Shown in pieces: positions 20,121 through 33,112 of a stretch of DNA of 64,000 nt. Each line of letters starts with the position of its first letter. The first letter of the stretch is position 1. The notes beneath the pieces were generated by a model. It saw only the letters and a program-made list of their open reading frames with translations. It searched no databases and had not been told where the DNA came from. Source of the stretch: Nitrospirota bacterium (GTDB lineage: Bacteria > Nitrospirota > Thermodesulfovibrionia > Thermodesulfovibrionales > UBA1546); assembly GCA_009773185.1 (NCBI GenBank), contig WPIF01000010.1, forward strand, positions 27,853-91,852. Reading direction: 5' to 3'. A program made the position numbers and the translations under genes.

Positions 20121-21602
20121 TTATCTCATTGCCAATAATTTCTCCGCCGGTATCTCCTTGCCGGATTCAGTGATGTAAACTACTTCTGAATCACCGCCTA
20201 TCTTTGCAGTAACCCTGACCTTCTCCACTTTCTCTCCTTCGGCATAGATAGGGCCGGTGTTTGACGCCGTTATTGTGAATGTCGAAGATACAATCACCTG
20301 AGAAGGATAGCCCACCGGAAGATTTATCTGGACAGAGCCGGAAGAAGAGGCATTTGTGCCGCTCAACGTTCCGGAGGCGCTGACAGCGCTGCCCACTGCC
20401 GGCAATGCCTTTACTGTTATAGCAGTATTCACAGGAATATTAGTTGCTGTTACAACCACTGCTATCGGATTATTCGTAGTAGATGGAAGATAAACATCAG
20501 GCGTATCAAACTTGCCCTGCGGCGCTGGAGGAACACTCACACCGCCTACGGATGTTATGGCAAGACCCGGCATATTCGCAGGCCGCACAAAAGTAGGATA
20601 ATAAGCTGAACTATACACAGGATTCGAACTGCCGGTAAAAGCAAAAATCCAGGCCTCAAGGCGTATAAGGCCAGAAGCGCCGCTGATGTTCTGCCGCCCG
20701 CAGGGGCCGATACCGTCGCTGCCTCCAACTGCTCTGATGGAACCATTGCCTGCAATGGTGTCAGCCATGAGTTTTATACCGCCGCCTGCGCCTCCTCCTC
20801 CTCCGCCTCCATATGCACGAGTCATTTGAAAGTTTCCGCCATTTCCGCCGGCTCCGCCATATGCAGTAATACTCCCATTTATTGTTATAGTTCCGGACGA
20901 GGCAATAAGTATAGCGCCACCGCCTCCACCGCCGGCTCCGCCGCTATAAGAATCTGTGCCTCCCCCACCTGCTCCGCCGGAACCCCCTATGAGGGATAAA
21001 AGCCTTGCATTGCCATAAGCAGAGCCCCCTGAACCGGGTGATGCAACATAGCAAAAAGAAGGATTTCCTTGGAGACCTTGGCTGCCAGCGCCGCCAAAAC
21101 CACCACCCCCTCCGTATCCGCCGCCAGAAACGTAAGATATTGGTGAACCTCCGCTTCCGCTGCCCGGGCCTTCTCCTCTGCGGCCGTCCTGATAAACAAT
21201 TCCGCCCAGCCCTCCATCAAACCCGCCGGGACCGCCTGTGCCAGGAGTGAAATAATCAGCGCCTCCGCTCTTTCCATCTACGCTGATAGCTCCGGCAATG
21301 GTCACATCCCCTGTAGCAAGGATAGTGACCGGGGTATTTTTAGTATTTTTTGTGAATGAGACAGCCACCCCTACAGGGATAGTTACGGTTCTGAAATTAA
21401 AGACTCCGCTTTCAGGTATCTGAAGAATTGTGTTTGCTGTCGGCGCAAAATCTCCGTCAGCTCCGGTGCTGCCGCTAACAAAGTTTCCTGCAACAGCATT
21501 GCCCCAAAACAGCAACAAATAAATTGATGTAAATAAAAATATCTTTCTCATCAAAGCCCTCCCTTGCCTGGTAACATTTCTGCTTTTAAATTCGTATCCC
21601 AT
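20121..21602 (-). CDS. Secreted glycine-rich repeat protein
   Basis: Signal peptide-like N-terminus, long GGxGGxGG tract, C-terminal beta-rich region. Confidence 0.75.
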   Translation of the reverse strand: MGYEFKSRNVTRQGRALMRKIFLFTSIYLLLFWGNAVAGNFVSGSTGADGDFAPTANTILQIPESGVFNFRTVTIPVGVAVSFTKNTKNTPVTILATGDVTIAGAISVDGKSGGADYFTPGTGGPGGFDGGLGGIVYQDGRRGEGPGSGSGGSPISYVSGGGYGGGGGFGGAGSQGLQGNPSFCYVASPGSGGSAYGNARLLSLIGGSGGAGGGGTDSYSGGAGGGGGGAILIASSGTITINGSITAYGGAGGNGGNFQMTRAYGGGGGGGAGGGIKLMADTIAGNGSIRAVGGSDGIGPCGRQNISGASGLIRLEAWIFAFTGSSNPVYSSAYYPTFVRPANMPGLAITSVGGVSVPPAPQGKFDTPDVYLPSTTNNPIAVVVTATNIPVNTAITVKALPAVGSAVSASGTLSGTNASSSGSVQINLPVGYPSQVIVSSTFTITASNTGPIYAEGEKVEKVRVTAKIGGDSEVVYITESGKEIPAEKLLAMR

Positions 21603-21619: not shown

Positions 21620-22663
21620 TTACTGTGGACTTATTTCAGCGCTTACAGGCGCTGAAATAGTTGTTGCATCCATTGATAACGGCTCTTCTTTATAAACGCT
21701 TACCGGAGGTCCCGATTCAACGGCATCCATTGATAACGGTTCTTCTTTGTAAACGCTTACCGGAGGTCCTGATTCAACTGCATCCACTGATAATGCTAGT
21801 TCCATATATGCGCTCACAGGCGCTGAAATAGTCGCCGCATCCACTGTTGAGGATTCCATATAAACACTGACCGGCGCACCTGAGGTTGCTACATCTCCTG
21901 AAAGAGGAGGCGTAACAAAGACTGTTCCAATAACGCCGCCGACGGCAACAATTCCTGTGCCCTGGCTTAAGGCCCTGACTGTGAATGTCCCGTTTCCGCC
22001 GGAAGGTATTATGATGGATTGAGACGCCTCTATAACATCGGGGGTTTCATTGATTATGGCTAAATTTAAATCCCTCGATGCAGACGGCGTTATGCCTGCT
22101 GAAATGGTTACTGTTTCCCCTGTGAGAAGATATGCTGCGCCGGGCTCTAATATCAGCTTATAAACAATTATAGGTATGCTCGCAGAGCCGTAAAAGGTTG
22201 TTACATTTATATTCGCCTGTCCTAAAGGAGCGCCCCATGAAATTGTCAGCGATGCCGTTATTGTCGAATCAGTCGCTGAAATATTGCTTATGCTTATTCC
22301 TGCATTGTCTGATGTAATTGACTGTGTTGTAAAAAGATTTGCTCCTGTGATTGTTACATCTATAGTTGAGTTCAAAAAGACGATGTCAGGATTGATGCTG
22401 TTAAGAGCAGGAGGGTTCTGGCTGATTGTATGTGTTGTAATCGAGATCAGATTCCCCACTCCATCATAGTTATATGTCGCCACCTCGCCTGTCTCCGAGA
22501 TAGTCTTTATCAGCCTCCCGGTATCGTCATAGATGTAGTTGCCGTCGGAGGCAAAAGAAAGAGAGGGTATGAGAAGCAACAGGCAGATAACCAGCAAATA
22601 GGCGATGAGCCTACGCAGGAAGATTATTGCTTGAATTTTATTTATGTCTCTCTGGCGCATCAT
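21620..22663 (-). CDS. Secreted Rhs-module protein: leader, two YD repeats, IPT/TIG-like region and 19-aa C-terminal tandem repeats
   Basis: MMRQRDINKIQAIIFLRRLIAYLLVICLLLLIPSLSFA signal peptide; YIYDDTGRLIKTISETGEVATYNYDGVGNLISI; C-terminal PVSVYKEEPLSMDAVESGP repeats. Confidence 0.75.
   Translation of the reverse strand: MMRQRDINKIQAIIFLRRLIAYLLVICLLLLIPSLSFASDGNYIYDDTGRLIKTISETGEVATYNYDGVGNLISITTHTISQNPPALNSINPDIVFLNSTIDVTITGANLFTTQSITSDNAGISISNISATDSTITASLTISWGAPLGQANINVTTFYGSASIPIIVYKLILEPGAAYLLTGETVTISAGITPSASRDLNLAIINETPDVIEASQSIIIPSGGNGTFTVRALSQGTGIVAVGGVIGTVFVTPPLSGDVATSGAPVSVYMESSTVDAATISAPVSAYMELALSVDAVESGPPVSVYKEEPLSMDAVESGPPVSVYKEEPLSMDATTISAPVSAEISPQ
21667..21894 (-). repeat. 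57-bp (19-aa) in-frame tandem repeat, about four copies
   Basis: CATCCA(T/C)TGATAA... blocks begin at 21667, 21724, 21781 and 21838: exact 57-nt period. Confidence 0.9.
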
Positions 22664-22724
22664 TTTTCTCTTTTAAAGTAGCCTGTCCCCTTTTCTCTGA
22701 TAAATGATTTTAAATGTTTGGCCC

Positions 22725-23117
22725 TCAAGTTTGCATCTTATGATCAAGAATTATTTTAATTATGATGCCATCTATGATTAAAGAAGCAATTAAAAGCTTC
22801 GGTGAAAAATGTGGAATTTCCATATGAAAATAAAATCGCAATATCATTAATGAAGATATGCCCACTAGGCCAATAGCTATAAAAACGCGATAAAACAAAA
22901 TCTTGATATTGTCAGATGTTTTCTTCAGCAGGATGACAAGAGTTATAAACAATCCGATAGCATTGAGAAATGCGATAGAAATATCAAACAAGTACCACTT
23001 TATTCCTGATAAATAGAAATAACGAACTATCAAATAACCTGATGCAAATGTTGATATTAATCCCCCCAGTAAATAAAGCAATATTGCAAAAAAAAGGATA
23101 TTTATTTTCTTTGTCAT
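22725..23117 (-). CDS. Small multi-TM protein, candidate immunity-type ORF in the Rhs array
   Basis: 130 aa with about four hydrophobic helices; overlaps the upstream leader-ORF end. Confidence 0.5.
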   Translation of the reverse strand: MTKKINILFFAILLYLLGGLISTFASGYLIVRYFYLSGIKWYLFDISIAFLNAIGLFITLVILLKKTSDNIKILFYRVFIAIGLVGISSLMILRFYFHMEIPHFSPKLLIASLIIDGIIIKIILDHKMQT

Positions 23118-23401
23118 TACCTCCCTCCTACAGCTACGGGATATGCTGATGATGGCGGTGGTCCATACGGTGGAAGAACGACCGGATGGGGCTCATGAGG
23201 TTCTGGCAGATGCGGGTGTGTTGGTGGAATATTTGATTTATGACATATTGCTGGCTGTATTGGATGGTGAGGCTCCTCGGGATGTGCTGCGACTGTCATT
23301 TCTTTGATCCTCGTGAGATATTTCAAAACCAGTAAATAGGCAATAATCTTCCTCAGCAGTAAGATTTGCTTGAGCTGTCTTATGTCTTTATAACTCTGCA
23401 T
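23117..23401 (-). CDS. Leader-bearing short ORF with Pro/His-rich tail (degenerate Rhs module)
   Basis: MQSYKDIRQLKQILLLRKIIAYLLVLKYLTRIKEMT... matches the leader of the 24461-26392 ORF. Confidence 0.55.
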   Translation of the reverse strand: MQSYKDIRQLKQILLLRKIIAYLLVLKYLTRIKEMTVAAHPEEPHHPIQPAICHKSNIPPTHPHLPEPHEPHPVVLPPYGPPPSSAYPVAVGGR

Positions 23402-23474
23402 TTCATCAGCTCCGGTAAAGTGTATTCTTTAGGTTTGACCCCTTATCTTTCCCCTTGCTTCCTAGGTTTAAGCC

Positions 23475-23927
23475 TCATTCATCCTTCTTCTTAGGGAAAA
23501 GAGCAAACCATTTCCCAACCATATAAAAGGGAATCGAATATAGAAATAGGGCTACCAAAAGTGCATATCCATTAAGATATTTAAAGCTAAAACCAGCTCC
23601 CCACAATGTCCATATAAAAACACCGACGCATACTAACAAATAAATACCAATTAAGTGTCGAATTTTTTTTGAAAAAACTGTGACAATCAATCCCAGAGTC
23701 GCAAACAAAAGAACATTTACACTGCTCGCGAGGATTACCGCATTAACCGTACCAATATTTATTTCTGTTACCGCAAGCATCTGCGAAGGCCAAAAAGAAA
23801 ATAGTAAATCATTGATAAAATCATAAATCGAATCAGACATGCTAAAAATATATGCTATACCCAAAATTAGCGGACCCAATAGACCGGTAGCGCTGAATAC
23901 AATAACTGTTTTTAGTGCTCTCTTCAT
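23475..23927 (-). CDS. Small multi-TM protein, candidate immunity-type ORF
   Basis: 150 aa, about four hydrophobic helices; between Rhs modules. Confidence 0.5.
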   Translation of the reverse strand: MKRALKTVIVFSATGLLGPLILGIAYIFSMSDSIYDFINDLLFSFWPSQMLAVTEINIGTVNAVILASSVNVLLFATLGLIVTVFSKKIRHLIGIYLLVCVGVFIWTLWGAGFSFKYLNGYALLVALFLYSIPFYMVGKWFALFPKKKDE

Positions 23928-24102
23928 TTTATAAATTTACCCGGTAAATTGTTAAAAAACGGCTTTAGAATAGAATATAGGGACACTTCCCATATTATTT
24001 TCCTTCTGCATTGTCATCTTTCCCTTTTAATACAACCGTCCCTTTTCTGTTTTTTTGTTCCTTTTCTTTTTCGCAATGCAAGCCCCGCCATTTTTGTTCT
24101 TT

Positions 24103-24456
24103 CTATAATTTGGGCAGCAAGGCAGCAATGATCAAAAAACAAATAAACGATATTACGAAAGATATAAAAAATTGTGTGGCTTTTTTCTTATAGTATTCAA
24201 CTTTCTTATCGTTATAAGTTTCAGTGGTTTTAAAAATAGATATAATCAAGTATATTGAACCAACAGGCCATCTTACCCACTCCCCAGCGCCGTCAACTAA
24301 TGGATCTCGTTTCATTAGGCTCCACCATTCTTCCTTATGCGCAGTTTTCATATATTTGTAATACTTTCGATAGTAACCATAGAAGAATAAAAAACTGCAC
24401 AACAGTATTAACATTATCAATAACATGATAGATAATTTAATAATTTCATTTAGCAT
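24103..24456 (-). CDS. Small membrane protein immediately downstream of the orphan Rhs tip, candidate immunity protein
   Basis: Start chosen at MLNEIIKLS, just after the Rhs stop; multiple hydrophobic segments. Confidence 0.55.
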   Translation of the reverse strand: MLNEIIKLSIMLLIMLILLCSFLFFYGYYRKYYKYMKTAHKEEWWSLMKRDPLVDGAGEWVRWPVGSIYLIISIFKTTETYNDKKVEYYKKKATQFFISFVISFICFLIIAALLPKL

Positions 24457-24460
24457 TGAT

Positions 24461-26392
24461 TTACCACCAATCCCCTCCGCCAAGAGTCCATGTATTACTG
24501 CCTCCGACAATAGCACCAATATAGCCACCTGGCAATGAAGGGCCTACAGTTATGCCACCGCCAGTAACATTGCCACCCGGACTTCTATATCCTAAAACTG
24601 AAAAAGCACCTATCCCCATACGTCCCACATTCCCAAATACTCCTCCTAGTTGTTTCACATTGCAAGTATTGTGTCCACTTATATGGACTCCTCCGGTTAA
24701 ACCATAAACCGACGCAGCAGCTCCACCACCTAAAACTGCAGTTATAGAAGATGACCACCCTGAATGCCAAGGCTTGCTTGGATCATGTGAAAAGTTACCA
24801 TAAATACCAGCTGTACCACCGAACCCCAATAAAGCACCTGAACCTTCAAATCCAACAGTTATTCCTGCTAACCCAAAGGGGTCTACATAAGTTACAGGCG
24901 AATTTGCGGTGTACGAAAATTTATTAATTCCCCCCAATAACCCTGTGGGGTCTTCTGAAATAAACCTTTCGCCAAATTTTGTTCTTAACCGATAGTGATA
25001 ATACCCATTCCCATCATTCTCTCTTCCCGTGTATTGGAAAGGATTGTGTATTGAAGGATTTGATATTTGAGTGTTTCCGAAAGGATCATAAAAATATTCG
25101 TTAGCGATGTTTCTTGAAGGGTCGGTTAAGGCAATAGTAGAGCCAAGAGCATCGCGCAGATAATAATAAGCCCCGTCCTGCCTGAATATTCCAAGCGTCT
25201 CATCAATATGAAGGCCACGTAGATAATTCGTTGTAACAGTCCCATCTTCTATCTCTTGCATGATATCCCAGCCGTCGTATAAAAACTTAGTGTCAGTGTT
25301 AGTGCCAGTGTCAGTATTGGAAATCGTCTTTTGAAACCTTCTGCCTAATGCATCGTATTTGAATGATGCGTTGTATGTCGGGCTGGTGATAGCCACAAGC
25401 TGATTCCTTGCATTCCACGAGTATGTTGTATCGCCTTTCTGTATGAGATTGCCGTTCTCGTCATAAATCAAATTCTCATTATTGACCTGTATCTGTTGAT
25501 TTGCCTGATTGTAAACTGCGGTCTTCGGTTCAGGCAATAAGGTTTTGTGTCCTGTGAAAGATGTCCTGTTGCCGTTTTTATCATAGCCGTATTTCAAAGA
25601 TTTCAATATGAGAGAATCAGACGAGTAGGTTATGTCGGTTAAGCGATTGGCATTGTCGTATTCATATGTGGCTATAATCCCATTCGGTAAAGTCATCGAA
25701 GTGCGTCTGCCAATAGAATCATGATTTATAGAAACAGTCTGCGTTCCTTGATTTATCTGTATCAATCTGCTGTTGGAATCATATTGATAAATTATAGGTT
25801 CCTGGCCTGCGACTGTCATAGAAGTCCTCCGGCCTAATGCATCGTAACTATATCCAATACTGCCGAGAGATGTTATTTCTTGAATCACCTTATCGGCTAT
25901 GCTTCCCCCGCAGCCCAGATTACAACCGTTATTTGAATACACATATTGAATGGGGCTAGATGCAGAATCGTTAATGTAATTCAGTCTTCCGATTGCATCG
26001 TATGCGTAGCTTGTATAGGAACTGTCATTATAGGCAGTCTTTATTATCCTGCTCAATAAGTCATAAGTAAAATTCGTCGTCTGGCCTTTTCTGTCTTTAG
26101 CCAAAACAAGATTATCCATCTTGTCATACGCATACGTTTCCATTTTCCCCAATTGATCAATCATCTTCTTTGCTCTATCTCTTTCATCATATTCATAGCT
26201 AATCACCTGATTCTTAGCGTCTGTAACAGAAAGCAGATTCCCATTCTTGTCATAACTGAATTTTGTCTTGCCGCTTAAAGCATCTGTGATTTCGGTTATT
26301 CTGTTGAGATATTTCAAAACAAGCAGATAGGCAACAAGCCTACGCAGAAATATTATCGTTTGAATTTTATTTATGTCTCTCTGTTGCATCAT
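24461..26392 (-). CDS. Orphan Rhs/YD-repeat module with core domain and glycine-rich C-terminal tip
   Basis: Leader then YD repeats, YFYDPFGNTQ...GRENDGNGYYHYRLRTKFGERFISEDPTGLLGGINKFSYTANSPVTYVDPFGL core, then distinct tip. Confidence 0.9.
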   Translation of the reverse strand: MMQQRDINKIQTIIFLRRLVAYLLVLKYLNRITEITDALSGKTKFSYDKNGNLLSVTDAKNQVISYEYDERDRAKKMIDQLGKMETYAYDKMDNLVLAKDRKGQTTNFTYDLLSRIIKTAYNDSSYTSYAYDAIGRLNYINDSASSPIQYVYSNNGCNLGCGGSIADKVIQEITSLGSIGYSYDALGRRTSMTVAGQEPIIYQYDSNSRLIQINQGTQTVSINHDSIGRRTSMTLPNGIIATYEYDNANRLTDITYSSDSLILKSLKYGYDKNGNRTSFTGHKTLLPEPKTAVYNQANQQIQVNNENLIYDENGNLIQKGDTTYSWNARNQLVAITSPTYNASFKYDALGRRFQKTISNTDTGTNTDTKFLYDGWDIMQEIEDGTVTTNYLRGLHIDETLGIFRQDGAYYYLRDALGSTIALTDPSRNIANEYFYDPFGNTQISNPSIHNPFQYTGRENDGNGYYHYRLRTKFGERFISEDPTGLLGGINKFSYTANSPVTYVDPFGLAGITVGFEGSGALLGFGGTAGIYGNFSHDPSKPWHSGWSSSITAVLGGGAAASVYGLTGGVHISGHNTCNVKQLGGVFGNVGRMGIGAFSVLGYRSPGGNVTGGGITVGPSLPGGYIGAIVGGSNTWTLGGGDWW

Positions 26393-26810
26393 TTTTCTCT
26401 TTTAATAGAACCGTTCCCTTTTCCGTTTCCCTTTTTCTATGTTTGTCTATCATTGTTCGCAATACTTCAGCAAATGTCTTTGGATTGGCAGGCGAAATTA
26501 ATACTGTTCCAAAGAACCCTTTCTTTTTTATAAGAACCAGCCTATGAGAAAATTTACCCCAAAATATTGGCCAAGGCTTACTTTTCAAAAGGGCAGTTAA
26601 TAACTGGCTTGGATTAATCTCTTGCACTTCAATAATTGAATCAAGATTAATCTTGCTTTTTATAGGAAGTAATCCTAAAAAATACCATTTCATGATGAGA
26701 TATTTTTCTTCTGTTATGTATTCAAACCTTGTCACCCGATAACCGAGGAAAGTAATGCCTATTACTAATGCAACAAAAATTATTGTAGAAATAAAATCTT
26801 CTAAGCTCAT
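26367..26810 (-). CDS. Membrane-anchored PH-like (YdbT-type) small protein, candidate immunity ORF
   Basis: N-terminal TM plus EKYLIMKWYFLGLLPIKSKINLDSIIEVQEI; follows the main Rhs gene with 4-nt overlap. Confidence 0.6.
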   Translation of the reverse strand: MSLEDFISTIIFVALVIGITFLGYRVTRFEYITEEKYLIMKWYFLGLLPIKSKINLDSIIEVQEINPSQLLTALLKSKPWPIFWGKFSHRLVLIKKKGFFGTVLISPANPKTFAEVLRTMIDKHRKRETEKGTVLLKEKNDATERHK

Positions 26811-29800
26811 CGTTTGGTAGTCCCTGTATTAGTATTGTAGCCACTTCCACTGAGACCTATGCCTGCACCTGTAAAAGGTGGACCGACAGAGAACATTCCA
26901 ATTCCATTACTGTAACTATATTGCATCGTAAATTTATAGGCGCCTATACCTACATTTAGCGAAATTGTTTTAAAGGGGCCTTTCAGTTGCGCTGCACACT
27001 TCGCATTAGTAACAAAAATACCAGCACCGATGCCAGCATACGCACCGCCAACTACATTTCCGCTATTTCCACTTGGATAGCTTGGTCCGTAGCCAGGGCC
27101 GCCTGCAAAACCGCCCCAACTTGCAAAGCCGCCGAAGTTTAAATTCTTAAAAAGTCCTTGACCAAAAAGCCCACCGCCTACTGAACCGGTCTGGCCAGCA
27201 CCGATGCCAACAAGTCCAGCTTCTGTTGATGTTGTACCCATTATTCCGATACCCCATAACCCCATCGGATCAATTCTGTTGACGGGGTTGCCGCCGACAC
27301 GTGCATACCAGTTCACATCCCCACTAGCGAACCTGAGGGGGTCTTGAGAAATATAGCGATTCAGTTCAAGGCTGTCATATCTGGCTCTTTCAAATAAAAG
27401 ACCAGTCCCGTCATTCTCACGTCCAGCGAATTGGAATGGACTATCGCTTGGCTCTCCGATAACAGATGACTCACCGAAAGGAGAATAGACATACTGAGCC
27501 TTGATAGTTCCTGTTTCATCGGTCAATGCAATTACAGAGCCCAATGCGTCTTGCTGATAATATCGAATAGTGCCGTCAGTCTTAATTCTTGCCAACGGCT
27601 CATCAATATTTAATGTCCTAATGTAATTGACTGTTACTGTTCCGCCTTCGACCTCCTGAACTATATCGAGATTATCATAAAGGTAATTGATAGTTTTCCC
27701 GTTAACTGTCCTCTCCATTCTACGACCTAATGCATCGTATTTGAAAGCAGCAGAGAGCGAAGAACAATCAGAGTTAAAACCGTTAATGCCCACGAGTTGG
27801 TTACGCACATTCCACGTGTAGTAGGTAGTCCCGCAGGAACGAGTAAGGGTTAAGAGATTTCCGTTTTCGTCATAGGTCAAAGGATAACCGTTCAGGGTCG
27901 TCATTTGATTTGCGGTATTGTATGTTGCTGTCATAGGCTGCGACATTTTTATAGGCACGTTCAAGCGAGGCGCGCTTGTGCGATTGCCGTTCTTGTCGTA
28001 GGTGTAGCCGATTTTTTCGAGAACAGCATTCAATGGATTTAAGGATTCAATATTTAAAAGTTGGCTCGCGTTGTCGTAGGAGTAATTCGTGGTAACGCCA
28101 TTAGGACGTGTGAGGGATGTCCGTCTTCCAATCGCATCATATGCAAAGTCAAAAGAAAGAGATTGCCACGCTCCGCTCGCAATGACATCGGTAAGGATAT
28201 TTGTCAATTGTCCATTCGCATTATAGCTATAATTCACAGGCTCTTGTCCCGCTACCGTCATCTTTGTTCTTCTGCCGAGCACATCATATTCATAACCAAT
28301 ATTGCCAAGAGAGGTAAGCTCTTGAATTACCTTATCAACTGCCGAACTGCCACATGCAGAGCAGCCATCATTCGAGTATGAATATTGGATCATGCCACTG
28401 TCGGTATCATTGATAGTGGATAAACGGCCTATGGCATCGTAAAAGTATTCAATAGTCTGGATTCCCGCCTGCACGGGAATGACGGTTTTTGTGAGCCTGT
28501 TGAACATGTCATAATTGAATGATGTTATCTCTCCTTTTCTATCCTTTGCAGAAATCAAGTTATCCATCTTGTCATACGAATATGTCTCAACCTTGCCAAG
28601 CTGGTCTGTCATGGTGGAGACCTTGTCTCTGACAGTGTAAGTGTAAGTGATAGTGTGAGCATTTGCATCGGTAACGGAAAGAAGGTTTCCATTCTTGTCA
28701 TAACTGAATTTTGTCTTGCCGCTTAAAGCGTCTGTGATTTCGGTTATTCGATTAGCTAAATCATAAACATACTGCGTGCTCTTGCCTTTGGCATCTATTG
28801 CCTTTATTAACCTGCCGATAAAGTCATATTGCATCTGCGCTGAGTTTCCGAGAGGGTCTGTTGTTTTTATCAAGTTTCCATAGCTGTCATACGTGAAGCT
28901 TGTGGTATTGTTCAAAGCGTCTGTTATTGAAATCGGTTGACCATAGCTGTTGTATGAAATGCTGACTGCTGATAGCTGAGGGCTGACAGCTTTTATCAAA
29001 TTCCCCTTAGCATCATAAGTCATTGTCGTTACATTCCCCAATGCATCTGTAATCTTTATCGGCTTGTTGAGGATGAGGTCATACTCATATCTCGTAACAT
29101 TCCCTGCCGGGTCTGTGGTTGTTGCAATATTTCCATTGGAATCATAAGTATAAGAGGTCTTTCTTCCCCCTTTATCCGTAACCGAAATAAGCTCATTTGT
29201 TGAGATGCGACGCTCGTATGTTGTCTGTCCTCCCTGCCCGTCTGTTGTCGAGAGCAGATATCCCTGCGAGTTGAACCTGTGGGTTATGGAGGACTTGTTC
29301 GGATATATCGCAACTGTCTGTGCTATTGTCGTTGTTGCTGTCGAACCTTGAGGAACGGATTGGCTGGTTGGAATGTTCACATAGATTATCCCGCATGTGT
29401 TTGCGGGAGCTGAATCGCCTTCACGCACAAAAGTCGGCCTGCAGGACGATGAAAGGGGCAATGTAGAATCCTGAACCCTCACAGGCGTGGCTGGCGAGAA
29501 ATAGTAGAAAAGATATTCCCCGCTATCTGCATTTACCTGCCTAAAGACCCTGCCTTGTGAATCATATTCGATTATCTCCTCTTTTATTCCTTTTGGATTG
29601 GTTATTGACGTAAGCCTTCCGCCACTATCATATGTGTATGTTGTCTTTCCCCCATCAGGGTTTGTGGTGGAGATAAGTCTGGCGCTTGAGTCATAGGTGT
29701 AGGTTACAGCCCTGCCTGATGAATCCATTACAGATGAGGTTACTGTATAGATTGAAAGACCTATTGTAATTGTCCTGTTTGTGATGTAAAGGGTTCTTCC

Positions 29801-32800
29801 TGTGCTGTCGCTTATAGCTGTTATGTTTCCGTATGAATCTCTCGATATGCTCACATAGTTTCCGGTTGCATCAGTCTGCCTTGTGAGTCTTCCATTTGTG
29901 TCGAATGTGTATGAGCTGCTGTTTTTGAATTTAAGCGTCCTTGTGTTGTCTCCGTTAAGATATGCCTTTACATTTTTTAAGGACAGATATTGGTCGTTTG
30001 TGTAGCTTCCGTCGGCATTTTTTGAAAGTATATATCTGCCTGCTTCTGGTGTTATATATGTGAAAGCGTTACCGCTTCCTTGCAAATAGTGGTCATAGTC
30101 TGTGCTCATGCCTCTCCCGAATGCGCCTATTGCTGTGTTATCTGATTTGTAGCGCCTTGATAGGCTTATCAGAGATGGAAAGGGATAGCCCATATCGCTT
30201 TCTGAATGCACCTGCATCCCGTTATACGGGTCTACTGAGTTGCCTCCTATGTTGCATGGGCCGCCGCCTTTTGGCGAGGGCTGTGCGCCTTTAGGAGAGT
30301 CCTGAGGCCTTTTTACCGGCTGGGGCCGGGATGCTCCGCAGCAGAATTTAGGAATACCGACACCCGGGTCAGGGATTATGTTCTTCCCATCGTCTGATAC
30401 AGTTCCCATCCCAAAGGTCTTCCATTGATTTGAATTCGGGTCAGGCGTTGGGGATTCGTCATAATACCAGAGGACCACCCGGTCCCCGGGCTGACCATTG
30501 AATGTATTCGGCATTTTGACAGGAATAGGCTGAGTCGGTATTCCTCCGCCGGGTTTGCCGAAATAGTACATAAAGATTTCGCTTGCATATACGCCTTCAG
30601 GAGGAGGCTTTATCGGAAGCCTGTCCATTGGCACGAGCGTTACAGAGACTTTTTCATTTGGCAGGCCGTCCCAGCCGATTATCTGAACGCCGGCAGGTAT
30701 CTTCATCTCAAAGTTCTTTATCTCAGGGTCTGTTACAATTGTGTCTTTTGTGATGTCTATAGGCGTGAAGGTCTTTGTGTTGACTTCATGGAGATAGATA
30801 AAATATGGGAGCTTATTATCAATTCCGCCTATGATTGTCACAGGAACAGGTATGCGCGAGGGATATGTGGCCTCAGGCGTGTTTGCCGTGCCTCCGTCTA
30901 TCATCAATGTCTGCTCTCCCACAGGAATATCAATGAACAGGAAATTCCCTGCCTCGTCTGTTACTGTTGTTTTGTCTCCTACTGTTAATGTTACGCCTTT
31001 AATCGGAGCAGCGTCCCTTGACCTTACAATCCTTCCGGTTATCGTTGTTGCGCCCTGAGGGATGGGATTGAGTGTTATTGATGCTGTTCTTGTTATGTCT
31101 ATTCCTTCTATGTTTGCTGTTCCTATAATTGTTAAAGCTGAGGGCTGAGAGCTTAAAGCAGAGAGCAGTTTGATGTTTAAGATTGAGGATTGATTAAGAG
31201 AGATATTTTCAGGATTAAAGGTTGCAGTAATGGGCGAATCACCCTTCGACAAGCTCAGGGTGACAAGGCTGGTGAACTGCTCAAGCCCTGTGCTTTGAAG
31301 ACTAACTATTGCTCCTGCGTTTCCATTTAACGGAATAGAGACTTCCTGAGGGCTTAAGTTTAATGCAAAGTCATTTCTTAAAAGAACTGTGAATGGTTCT
31401 GCGCTCTGTGTGCTTCCGATTGTGGTTTCAACTTTTATAGGGCCTGTTGTAGCGCCGATGGGGACGATGACCTTAATCTCATTTTGTGAAAGGCTCTGAA
31501 TTGTTGCCTGTATATTATTGAACAATACCTTTGTAGGGGTGTAGTTGAAATTGTCCCCTGTGATTGTAACGACTGTCCCTGCCCGACCTGATTTTGGGGT
31601 AAAATCTGTTATAACAGGATATGGGTCTGTAACAGTAAAATTCAGGAAGTTTGAGTTCTGGCCATCAGGAGTCCTGGCAACAACGAGGTATATCCCCTTG
31701 GTTGCAATCAATGCTGATGGGGCTATTGCATTAAGCTCTCCTGAATTAATGTAGGTTGTTGCTAAATCCTGTCCGTTGAAATTAACCGTATAACCAGGAT
31801 AGAAGTTTGAACCATAAACCTTAAGCGTAAAATCAGGGCTTCTTGCAGCGATTGTATTCGGCGATATTGATGAAAGTATCGGTATCGGGTATTTAATCGT
31901 AAATGGATAAGGCTCTGATATGCCTCCGTCAGGAGCAGGGTTTGTAACTGTAACAGGAACCGTGCTTGGCGTTGCAATAAGGCTTGACGGCACTTGCGCT
32001 TCGAGTTCTTCGTTATCCTTAAAGCTTGTCGTGAGGTTGTTTTGATTGAATTGGACGGAAGACGTTGTTATGAATTTTTTGCCTTCAACGAGCAATGAAA
32101 ACCCGGCCTCTCCTGACCTTGCCGATCTTGGAACAAGGTTCATTATCTCAGGTCGCGGATTTGGAAGCTGTAACAGGATAATCGAATTATCAGCAGCGAT
32201 TGCCGCCTGATTGGTATAGGGATTTATTGCTATATCATAAAGGTTCTTTGTGAGTTGATCGGGCTTAAGCTTATCGCTCAGAATATTTGCGGTCATAGGA
32301 GACAGGATAACAGCTGTTCCTGTTGATTGATTCACATCCGCCGCGCCTGCATTTGAAAGCTCTATCTGCTGCTCGATTATCATTGTGTCGGGATTCATTA
32401 TGTCTATACCATTAACTGCATTTGTGAGGACTATCCTGTCGGTCTGAGAATTTATCTTAAGGTCTTTTATCTTTTGCACTGTGTTTATGTTTCTCTTTAT
32501 GTTTCCCGTAGACAGGTCAAGGAAAAGGACTGTGCCGCCCTCTGATGCGCCTGTGCCGAAGTTTGAAGCCATTGCAGCGGAGACTATTATCTCATTCCTC
32601 TTTTTATCAATCTCGACATGGTTGGGTTTCATGCCGATATTCAAAGTGTAGGAAATCTGTAACGACGCCTCATTTATGACATATACTGTGTTGTTGTTCT
32701 CGCAGCCGACTGCGATAATGCCGCCTCCAACTGCTGCCGATGCCGGAGATTTGCCGATATCTACTGTTGAGAGCAGGTTTAAGTCTTTGTCAAATACATA

Positions 32801-33112
32801 AAGAGCGGCCTTTGCGTCTTTTCCGGCAGGCACATATACCCTGTCTCCGCTTACTGCAACATCGCGGGGCTTGTCCTGAAATACATAGGATGAAATGAGA
32901 GCAAGAGATTTTAAATCAACCTTGTATAAAGTCTTGTAATTCTCCGATACTGCAAAGGCTGTATTGTCCGGGGGACTTGCGGCTATGGAAGTCGGCGTGT
33001 ATTGCAGGGGGATTTCATTTATAGATGAGGGAGAATCCGAGGAAACAGATTCAGGAGATAATAAAAAGACAAAAGTCAAAAACAAATATAACAAAATATT
33101 GTTTTTGCGCAT
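26807..33112 (-). CDS. Large Sec-type secreted Rhs/YD-repeat protein: beta-propeller-like N-terminus, IPT/TIG domains, YD repeats, Rhs core and Gly-rich tip
   Basis: 2101 aa; signal peptide; YVINEASLQISYTLNIGMKPNHVEI propeller; TPKSGRAGTVVTITGDNFNYTPTKVLFNN IPT; many YDxxGR repeats; SPFQFAGRENDGTGLLFERARYDSLELNRYISQDPLRFASGDVNWYARVGGNPVNRIDPMGL. Confidence 0.95.
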   Translation of the reverse strand: MRKNNILLYLFLTFVFLLSPESVSSDSPSSINEIPLQYTPTSIAASPPDNTAFAVSENYKTLYKVDLKSLALISSYVFQDKPRDVAVSGDRVYVPAGKDAKAALYVFDKDLNLLSTVDIGKSPASAAVGGGIIAVGCENNNTVYVINEASLQISYTLNIGMKPNHVEIDKKRNEIIVSAAMASNFGTGASEGGTVLFLDLSTGNIKRNINTVQKIKDLKINSQTDRIVLTNAVNGIDIMNPDTMIIEQQIELSNAGAADVNQSTGTAVILSPMTANILSDKLKPDQLTKNLYDIAINPYTNQAAIAADNSIILLQLPNPRPEIMNLVPRSARSGEAGFSLLVEGKKFITTSSVQFNQNNLTTSFKDNEELEAQVPSSLIATPSTVPVTVTNPAPDGGISEPYPFTIKYPIPILSSISPNTIAARSPDFTLKVYGSNFYPGYTVNFNGQDLATTYINSGELNAIAPSALIATKGIYLVVARTPDGQNSNFLNFTVTDPYPVITDFTPKSGRAGTVVTITGDNFNYTPTKVLFNNIQATIQSLSQNEIKVIVPIGATTGPIKVETTIGSTQSAEPFTVLLRNDFALNLSPQEVSIPLNGNAGAIVSLQSTGLEQFTSLVTLSLSKGDSPITATFNPENISLNQSSILNIKLLSALSSQPSALTIIGTANIEGIDITRTASITLNPIPQGATTITGRIVRSRDAAPIKGVTLTVGDKTTVTDEAGNFLFIDIPVGEQTLMIDGGTANTPEATYPSRIPVPVTIIGGIDNKLPYFIYLHEVNTKTFTPIDITKDTIVTDPEIKNFEMKIPAGVQIIGWDGLPNEKVSVTLVPMDRLPIKPPPEGVYASEIFMYYFGKPGGGIPTQPIPVKMPNTFNGQPGDRVVLWYYDESPTPDPNSNQWKTFGMGTVSDDGKNIIPDPGVGIPKFCCGASRPQPVKRPQDSPKGAQPSPKGGGPCNIGGNSVDPYNGMQVHSESDMGYPFPSLISLSRRYKSDNTAIGAFGRGMSTDYDHYLQGSGNAFTYITPEAGRYILSKNADGSYTNDQYLSLKNVKAYLNGDNTRTLKFKNSSSYTFDTNGRLTRQTDATGNYVSISRDSYGNITAISDSTGRTLYITNRTITIGLSIYTVTSSVMDSSGRAVTYTYDSSARLISTTNPDGGKTTYTYDSGGRLTSITNPKGIKEEIIEYDSQGRVFRQVNADSGEYLFYYFSPATPVRVQDSTLPLSSSCRPTFVREGDSAPANTCGIIYVNIPTSQSVPQGSTATTTIAQTVAIYPNKSSITHRFNSQGYLLSTTDGQGGQTTYERRISTNELISVTDKGGRKTSYTYDSNGNIATTTDPAGNVTRYEYDLILNKPIKITDALGNVTTMTYDAKGNLIKAVSPQLSAVSISYNSYGQPISITDALNNTTSFTYDSYGNLIKTTDPLGNSAQMQYDFIGRLIKAIDAKGKSTQYVYDLANRITEITDALSGKTKFSYDKNGNLLSVTDANAHTITYTYTVRDKVSTMTDQLGKVETYSYDKMDNLISAKDRKGEITSFNYDMFNRLTKTVIPVQAGIQTIEYFYDAIGRLSTINDTDSGMIQYSYSNDGCSACGSSAVDKVIQELTSLGNIGYEYDVLGRRTKMTVAGQEPVNYSYNANGQLTNILTDVIASGAWQSLSFDFAYDAIGRRTSLTRPNGVTTNYSYDNASQLLNIESLNPLNAVLEKIGYTYDKNGNRTSAPRLNVPIKMSQPMTATYNTANQMTTLNGYPLTYDENGNLLTLTRSCGTTYYTWNVRNQLVGINGFNSDCSSLSAAFKYDALGRRMERTVNGKTINYLYDNLDIVQEVEGGTVTVNYIRTLNIDEPLARIKTDGTIRYYQQDALGSVIALTDETGTIKAQYVYSPFGESSVIGEPSDSPFQFAGRENDGTGLLFERARYDSLELNRYISQDPLRFASGDVNWYARVGGNPVNRIDPMGLWGIGIMGTTSTEAGLVGIGAGQTGSVGGGLFGQGLFKNLNFGGFASWGGFAGGPGYGPSYPSGNSGNVVGGAYAGIGAGIFVTNAKCAAQLKGPFKTISLNVGIGAYKFTMQYSYSNGIGMFSVGPPFTGAGIGLSGSGYNTNTGTTKR
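28158..28187 (-). repeat. Dispersed palindromic repeat inserted in frame in the Rhs gene (TGTCATTGCGAGCGGAGCGTGGCAATCTCT type)
   Basis: Translated VIASGAWQSL; absent from the aligned paralogous module. Confidence 0.8.
28457..28485 (-). repeat. Dispersed palindromic repeat inserted in frame (CCGTCATTCCCGTGCAGGCGGGAATCCAG type)
   Basis: ATTCCCG-CCTGCA-CGGGAAT inverted repeat; translated VIPVQAGIQ. Confidence 0.9.
31239..31264 (-). repeat. Dispersed repeat inserted in frame (GTCACCCTGAGCTTGTCGAAGGGTGA type)
   Basis: Translated VTLSLSKGD; CACCCT...AGGGTG inverted arms. Confidence 0.9.

What the first reader, a model, noticed from the sequence alone, without database searches (positions are those of the whole stretch)
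22577..26392. Recurrent leader cassette at the start of three unrelated ORFs
Seen: ORFs starting at 22663, 23401 and 26392 begin MMRQRDINKIQAIIFLRRLIAYLLV, MQSYKDIRQLKQILLLRKIIAYLLVLKYLTRI and MMQQRDINKIQTIIFLRRLVAYLLVLKYLNRI. The DNA is also alike (TAGGC..YAAGCCTACGCAG..., TTGAATTTTATTTATGTCTCTCTG on the plus strand), while what follows differs completely: IPT/19-aa repeats, a Pro/His tail, or YD repeats plus Rhs core. In the first ORF the leader completes a plausible Sec signal peptide. Inference: a portable start/leader segment that is recombined onto different Rhs 3' fragments.
Basis: partly seen in the sequence, partly recalled or inferred. Interest (0 to 1): 0.7.

Follow-up and report, generated by a model that had tools for sequence, protein, structure and literature searches.

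The report
Portable start cassette for orphan Rhs modules
A roughly 115-base segment carrying a start codon and a conserved 30-residue peptide sits at the front of many different broken-off toxin-gene (Rhs) fragments in Nitrospirota bacteria, giving fragments that elsewhere usually lack a start signal a shared, apparently translated beginning.

Summary
Three minus-strand ORFs in the window (ATG at 26392, 23401, 22663) begin with one leader family. The genome has five copies. I found 24 in 11 genomes (10 genera) of one Nitrospirota class, none in the viral, phage or plasmid collections. Each lies on a rhs-type locus or a decayed remnant, except two or three weak hits. At 17 of 21 loci it directly follows a small same-strand ORF, the presumed immunity gene of the preceding module. 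It is fused in frame (17 of 17) to Rhs/YD sequence cut at many different points. DNA homology between copies starts about 30 nt before the ATG and ends near codon 28-30, so the unit is a discrete ~115 nt cassette. Codon statistics show the peptide is translated and under purifying selection. The 5' edge usually carries the terminal repeat (REP) of RAYT/Y1 transposase elements present in the same genomes. Leaders do not group by genome, and the three window copies fall in two clades, so they are not all deletion products of one tandem duplication. Best reading: a portable translation-start cassette for displaced (orphan) Rhs toxin-immunity modules, which classically lack a start. How it moves and what the peptide does are inferred.

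The parts
26303..26392 (-). leader copy c (30 codons, MMQQRDINKIQTIIFLRRLVAYLLVLKYLN); fused in frame to YD repeats/Rhs core
   Evidence: family alignment
26404..26418 (-). REP-like motif GGGAACGGTTCTATT, 11 nt before the leader ATG
   Evidence: same motif class ends RAYT elements in relatives
24461..26392 (-). orphan Rhs ORF 1: leader + YD repeats + Rhs core (DPFGL motif) + 3' tip
24103..24456 (-). small membrane-type ORF 4 nt after orphan ORF 1, presumed immunity gene
   Evidence: position only, no family above cut-off
26367..26810 (-). 147-aa ORF after the main rhs gene (weak bPH_5), presumed immunity gene; its 3' end runs through the REP and overlaps the leader start
26807..33112 (-). main rhs gene, 2101 aa with hydrophobic N-terminal signal-type stretch, no leader
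23306..23401 (-). leader copy b (MQSYKDIRQLKQILLLRKIIAYLLVLKYLTRI), second clade
23431..23442 (-). REP-like motif GGGGTCAAACCT before leader b; same core as the ends of the RAYT element on contig C30
23117..23401 (-). ORF with leader b and a Pro/His-rich tail (decayed or very short module)
22725..23117 (-). 130-aa membrane ORF starting at the stop of the leader-b ORF, presumed immunity gene
23475..23927 (-). 150-aa membrane ORF directly upstream of leader b, presumed immunity gene
22589..22663 (-). leader copy a (MMRQRDINKIQAIIFLRRLIAYLLV), fused into a signal-peptide core
22675..22689 (-). REP GGGACAGGCTACTTT; its only other exact copies in the genome are the two inverted ends of the RAYT element on contig C41
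21620..22663 (-). ORF with leader a + signal-type core + one YD repeat + IPT-like/19-aa repeats; homologues elsewhere start with their own n-region

Best explanation
The segment is a discrete, portable translation-start cassette (RAYT-type REP end, short A-rich spacer, ATG, 30-codon conserved helical leader peptide). It stands at the 5' boundary of displaced (orphan) Rhs toxin-immunity modules. Shown by sequence: the cassette recurs across genera. Its homology stops sharply on both sides. It follows a small, presumed immunity ORF, sometimes overlapping its stop codon. It reads in frame into Rhs sequence cut at many points. Its peptide is under purifying selection. Inferred: ribosomes finishing the upstream immunity gene re-initiate at the leader ATG. 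This keeps the headless Rhs fragment translated, and with it the next immunity gene, which starts at or near the fragment's stop codon. The cassette is spread and re-joined by illegitimate recombination, probably helped by RAYT transposases acting at the REP. The leader helix may serve as an N-terminal cap or membrane tether for the truncated Rhs protein; that last step is the least certain.
For: 24 copies in 11 of 395 phylum genomes, all in the window's class. Upstream ORF of 89-368 aa ends within -107 to +26 of the leader ATG at 17 of 21 loci; the stop overlaps the start (ATGA) at G000.C41, G363, G260.C20 and, using the first ATG, G260.C62b. In-frame continuation into Rhs-derived sequence 17 of 17 (chance 8e-9, or 5e-5 counting one per genome). 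pS 0.69 vs pN 0.26, pS>pN in every pair; amino-acid identity 0.615 vs 0.374 after column shuffling, 0 of 500 shuffles reach it. Homology limits about -30 to +74..+112, usually ending +83..+90. REP identical to RAYT element ends in the same genome. Leader predicted as one helix, residues 4-34, pLDDT about 62-85. Classical orphans usually lack translation initiation signals (PMC3150448, PMC3967940).
Against: No expression data. Immunity role of the upstream ORFs rests on position; most have no family. About 7 copies are decayed or followed directly by chromosomal genes, so many cassettes are relics. REP motif classes were chosen after seeing the data; 8-9 loci have no clear REP. Leader-less orphans also exist in these genomes (168-aa orphan in G004).
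Confidence: 0.6

Rival explanations
1. Deletion derivatives: one ancestral leader-bearing rhs gene was duplicated in tandem, and internal deletions of different length joined the leader to different core positions; the leader has no function of its own.
For: Copies 1 and 3 are close relatives within one locus. In G260.C62b the leader lies just upstream of a full-length-type rhs start, a possible ancestral state. Arrays of dead modules are common.
Against: Copy 2 is in another clade with another REP. Leaders from one genome do not group (6 changes vs shuffled mean 6.4). The left breakpoint is always at codon 25-33 while the right one varies. Purifying selection acts on the peptide. Orphan 1 is only about 72% identical in DNA to the main rhs gene of its own locus.
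Confidence: 0.2
2. The leader is a passenger of RAYT (REP-associated Y1 transposase) elements: REP plus leader is a non-autonomous mini-element that inserts after immunity-gene stop codons and occasionally reads through into whatever follows.
For: REP immediately upstream, identical to RAYT termini. Y1 transposase genes lie inside all seven REP pairs spaced 0.6-0.8 kb that were seen. An intact RAYT sits about 30 nt after an immunity-type ORF at the same kind of junction on C41. REP class tracks leader clade (p 0.0006 liberal, 0.005 strict).
Against: No inverted right-hand REP after the leader; REPs in the arrays are in direct orientation. Nearly every copy lies at or beside a rhs locus or a decayed remnant rather than dispersed. 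Sister copies a and c carry different REPs. In-frame joining to Rhs would be unexplained.
Confidence: 0.15
3. A conserved RNA or DNA structure, not a peptide: the AGGC-N5-GCCT hairpin inside the leader is the functional part (recombination site or regulatory fold).
For: The hairpin is seen in several copies, with alternative stems in others such as GGCAA-CTCA-TTGCC and AGAC-TGTAT-GTCT.
Against: Lost in several copies (for example G363, G311, C1). Single-sequence folds differ between loci. Divergence follows codon positions (1214/524/1331), and the leader frame is open in 24 of 24 while other frames rarely are.
Confidence: 0.05

Closest known systems
Orphan rhs-CT/rhsI and cdiA-CT/cdiI modules (Poole 2011 PMC3150448; Koskiniemi 2014 PMC3967940)
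   Same: Arrays of truncated 3' fragments, each followed by a small gene in immunity position, downstream of a main toxin gene; fragments keep variable lengths of core ending at a DPxGL-type boundary.
   Different: Classical orphans usually lack translation initiation and export signals. Here many carry the same conserved translated start cassette, and a REP motif marks the module boundary.
Internally expressed Rhs toxin-antitoxin modules of Salmonella (PMC7043789)
   Same: Rhs toxin fragments translated inside the cell with their immunity gene.
   Different: There, translation starts at an internal CTG within the conserved core, with no added leader. Here a separate conserved peptide is joined in front.
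REP / RAYT (TnpA-REP, Y1 transposase) elements and REPINs (PMC2817692, PMC3116915)
   Same: The motif before the leader is the terminal repeat of RAYT elements in the same genomes.
   Different: Single, direct-oriented motif next to a coding leader, in place of the inverted pair around a transposase or the short REPIN pair.
Polymorphic toxin cassettes exchanged by 3' recombination (Zhang 2012 PMC3482391)
   Same: A toxin tip plus immunity gene moves as a unit at the 3' end of a constant gene.
   Different: Here the shared part is a short 5' cassette added to already displaced fragments, not a trafficking domain.

Membership tests
orphan Rhs toxin-immunity modules | truncated Rhs core lacking the N-terminal delivery part | tested here: met
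   RHS_repeat / Rhs_assc_core hits in leader ORFs of 185-643 aa versus main genes of 1393-2101 aa
orphan Rhs toxin-immunity modules | variable C-terminal tip after a DPxGL-type motif | tested here: met
   DPFGL, DPMGL, DPKGL, DPSGL or DPTGH followed by unrelated tips, one phospholipase A2-like
orphan Rhs toxin-immunity modules | small cognate immunity gene directly downstream | tested here: inconclusive
   Small ORFs present at the stop codon in several loci, but few match any family; neutralisation cannot be tested
orphan Rhs toxin-immunity modules | usually no translation initiation signal (typical, not strictly defining) | tested here: not met
   Conserved ATG leader under purifying selection; classical description
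RAYT/REP element | inverted REP pair around a Y1 transposase or a REPIN pair | tested here: not met
   Leader-associated REPs are single and direct; intact RAYTs with inverted REPs lie elsewhere in the same genomes
RAYT/REP element | terminal repeat sequence identical to RAYT ends | tested here: met
   GGGACAGGCTACTTT: three exact copies in the genome, two at RAYT ends and one before leader a; GGGTCAAACCT at the C30 RAYT and before leader b
Sec signal peptide | n-region, hydrophobic core, cleavage site | tested here: inconclusive
   Only copy a (LLVICLLLLIPSLSFA) looks like one by eye; other leaders have mean hydrophobicity 0-0.5 in residues 13-30, basic residues mid-helix and low helical moment. 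No signal-peptide predictor available

The most novel reading that the evidence does not exclude
REP plus leader is a mobile 'start-codon cassette': a mini-element mobilised by RAYT transposases that repeatedly lands at rhs module junctions, its YD-repeat-like tail (KYLNRIxEITD) joining in register to Rhs repeats. It re-activates translation of orphan toxin fragments and couples it to immunity genes.
Probability: 0.15. Interest if true: 0.75.

Novelty: new variant of a known kind. Interest (0 to 1): 0.57.

Why it matters
Orphan Rhs and CDI toxin fragments are generally held to be silent reservoirs because they lack start signals. A conserved, selected leader placed in frame on many different fragments suggests that in one bacterial class these fragments are translated as they stand. 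It also links their module boundaries to a known transposase family, offering a route by which such modules might be assembled.

Tried and rejected
Leader as RNA/DNA structure: hairpin not kept, codon pattern favours a peptide. Leader as general signal peptide: poor fit except copy a. Leader as amphipathic membrane helix: helical moment no higher than shuffles. Homologues in viral contigs, phages, plasmids and solved structures: none that count. The genome-contig scan gave only two Nitrospirota loci, but its pattern was narrow, so absence from other phyla is weakly tested. Published description of a shared leader on orphan Rhs modules: none found in the held papers.

Full report
Observation. 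All three ORFs are present on the minus strand with the reported N-termini. Copies 1 (22663) and 3 (26392) share 105-107 nt at 83-84% identity; copy 2 (23401) is related but more distant. The surroundings form one rhs locus: main rhs 33112-26807 (2101 aa), presumed immunity ORF 26810-26367, leader orphan 26392-24461 with a small ORF at 24456, a 150-aa membrane ORF 23927-23475, leader ORF 23401-23117 with a 130-aa ORF starting at its stop, then leader ORF 22663-21620 and a glycine-rich ORF 21602-20121.

Distribution. A profile of the leader finds 5 copies in this genome and 24 in 11 of 395 genomes of the phylum; all 11 are in the window's class. One relative is a named Nitrospirae groundwater MAG. 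No copies in viral contigs, phages or plasmids.

Context. At 17 of 21 loci a same-strand ORF of 89-368 aa ends within -107 to +26 nt of the leader ATG; in several the stop and start overlap as ATGA. Full modules are clear in relatives. G004: main rhs 1393 aa, immunity-type ORF, leader-less orphan and its ORF, leader orphan of 318 aa, next ORF, then leader remnant. G007: main 1902 aa, ORF, leader orphan of 570 aa whose stop overlaps a 182-aa ORF with a signal-type N-terminus. G193: main rhs of 1454 aa, a 116-aa ORF, then a leader orphan. Some final leaders are remnants followed directly by ordinary chromosomal genes (by eye: nuoN, ilvH, secY, a cheY-type gene), so the rhs locus ends there.

Junctions. 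The leader is joined to Rhs/YD sequence at many points, in frame in 17 of 17 cases (the count includes the C1 stub and short remnants judged by eye). In about ten loci the join keeps the YD register: the leader tail KYL is followed by [NGSKT]R[IL], as in YDxxNRITEITD of the main gene. In copy 1 and in G260.C62b the leader is fused to, or stands before, a signal-peptide start; homologues of copy 1 begin with their own n-region. On contig C1 it is joined to a short Rhs stub and then, in frame, to the 3' end of a homologue of the glycine-rich ORF at 20121. The orphan in the window is only about 72% identical in DNA to its own main gene over the first 265 nt, with a better conserved 88-nt stretch at the junction.

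The unit. Pairwise DNA comparison of all loci shows homology from about -30 to +74..+112 around the ATG, most often ending at +83..+90; flanks are unrelated. Across 17 loci divergence is 1214/524/1331 at codon positions 1/2/3, pS 0.69 against pN 0.26. With one locus per genome, amino-acid identity is 0.615 against 0.374 after shuffling columns. The peptide is basic, hydrophobic, not amphipathic, and modelled as one helix, residues 4-34, ahead of the Rhs strands; the rest of that model is poor (mean pLDDT 52.7).

REP link. GGGACAGGCTACTTT occurs exactly three times in the genome: at both inverted ends of the Y1-transposase (RAYT) gene on C41 and before copy 1. GGGTCAAACCT lies at the near end of the RAYT on C30, with its inverse GGTTTGACCCC at the far end, and before copy 2. 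In relatives, REP pairs 0.6-0.8 kb apart enclose Y1 transposase genes. REPs before leaders are single and in direct orientation. REP class follows leader clade (exploratory Fisher p 0.0006 liberal, 0.005 strict), although sister copies 1 and 3 differ in REP. A fifth motif class (GACCRTTAAAAAATAA; G005, G341) was found almost only at leaders and is not tied to a RAYT.

Tree. Leaders fall in two clades (support 85/87) that cut across genomes; copies 1 and 3 are in one, copy 2 in the other; genome labels are no more clustered than shuffled. This argues against simple deletion derivatives, with the caution that a ~90-nt alignment resolves little.

Mechanism. Shown: recurrence, discreteness, coding selection, position after a small ORF, in-frame joins, REP adjacency. 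Inferred: immunity function of the small ORFs, translational coupling, RAYT involvement, function of the helix. Literature: orphan modules are described as usually lacking translation initiation; Salmonella orphan Rhs is translated from an internal CTG. I found no report of a shared leader in the held library, which lacks most subscription papers.

Verdict. A real, conserved and apparently undescribed start cassette on orphan Rhs modules; a new variant of a known kind.

Noticed in passing
L015:4640-5400 (G000:C41): Intact RAYT element with inverted GGGACAGGCTACTTT ends inserted about 30 nt after an immunity-type ORF of a second rhs locus in the same genome.
   Followed up: partly
L015:7730-7850 (G000:C41): Two further REP-like motifs follow the leader remnant in direct orientation; the second continues into a decayed leader start, as if several modules had been lost one after another.
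   Followed up: partly
L131:1472-1777 (G341:C71): Weak leader-like start (E about 3e-5) fused to a fragment that does not look like Rhs, next to RAYT/transposase remnants and a short inverted REP pair.
   Followed up: no
L022:1200-1430 (G000:C30): Short tandem repeat of about 17 nt (agaaatttgagggtcaa) directly before a RAYT element, partly masked as N.
   Followed up: no
window:20121-21602: Glycine-rich secreted-type ORF; a homologue follows the homologue of copy 1's ORF in G005.C149, and its 3' end recurs behind a leader on contig C1. Perhaps an accessory gene of rhs loci.
   Followed up: partly
L016:9907-10800 (G005:C24): Leader orphan with a fibronectin-III stretch, Rhs core and a phospholipase A2-like C-terminal tip.
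   Followed up: no
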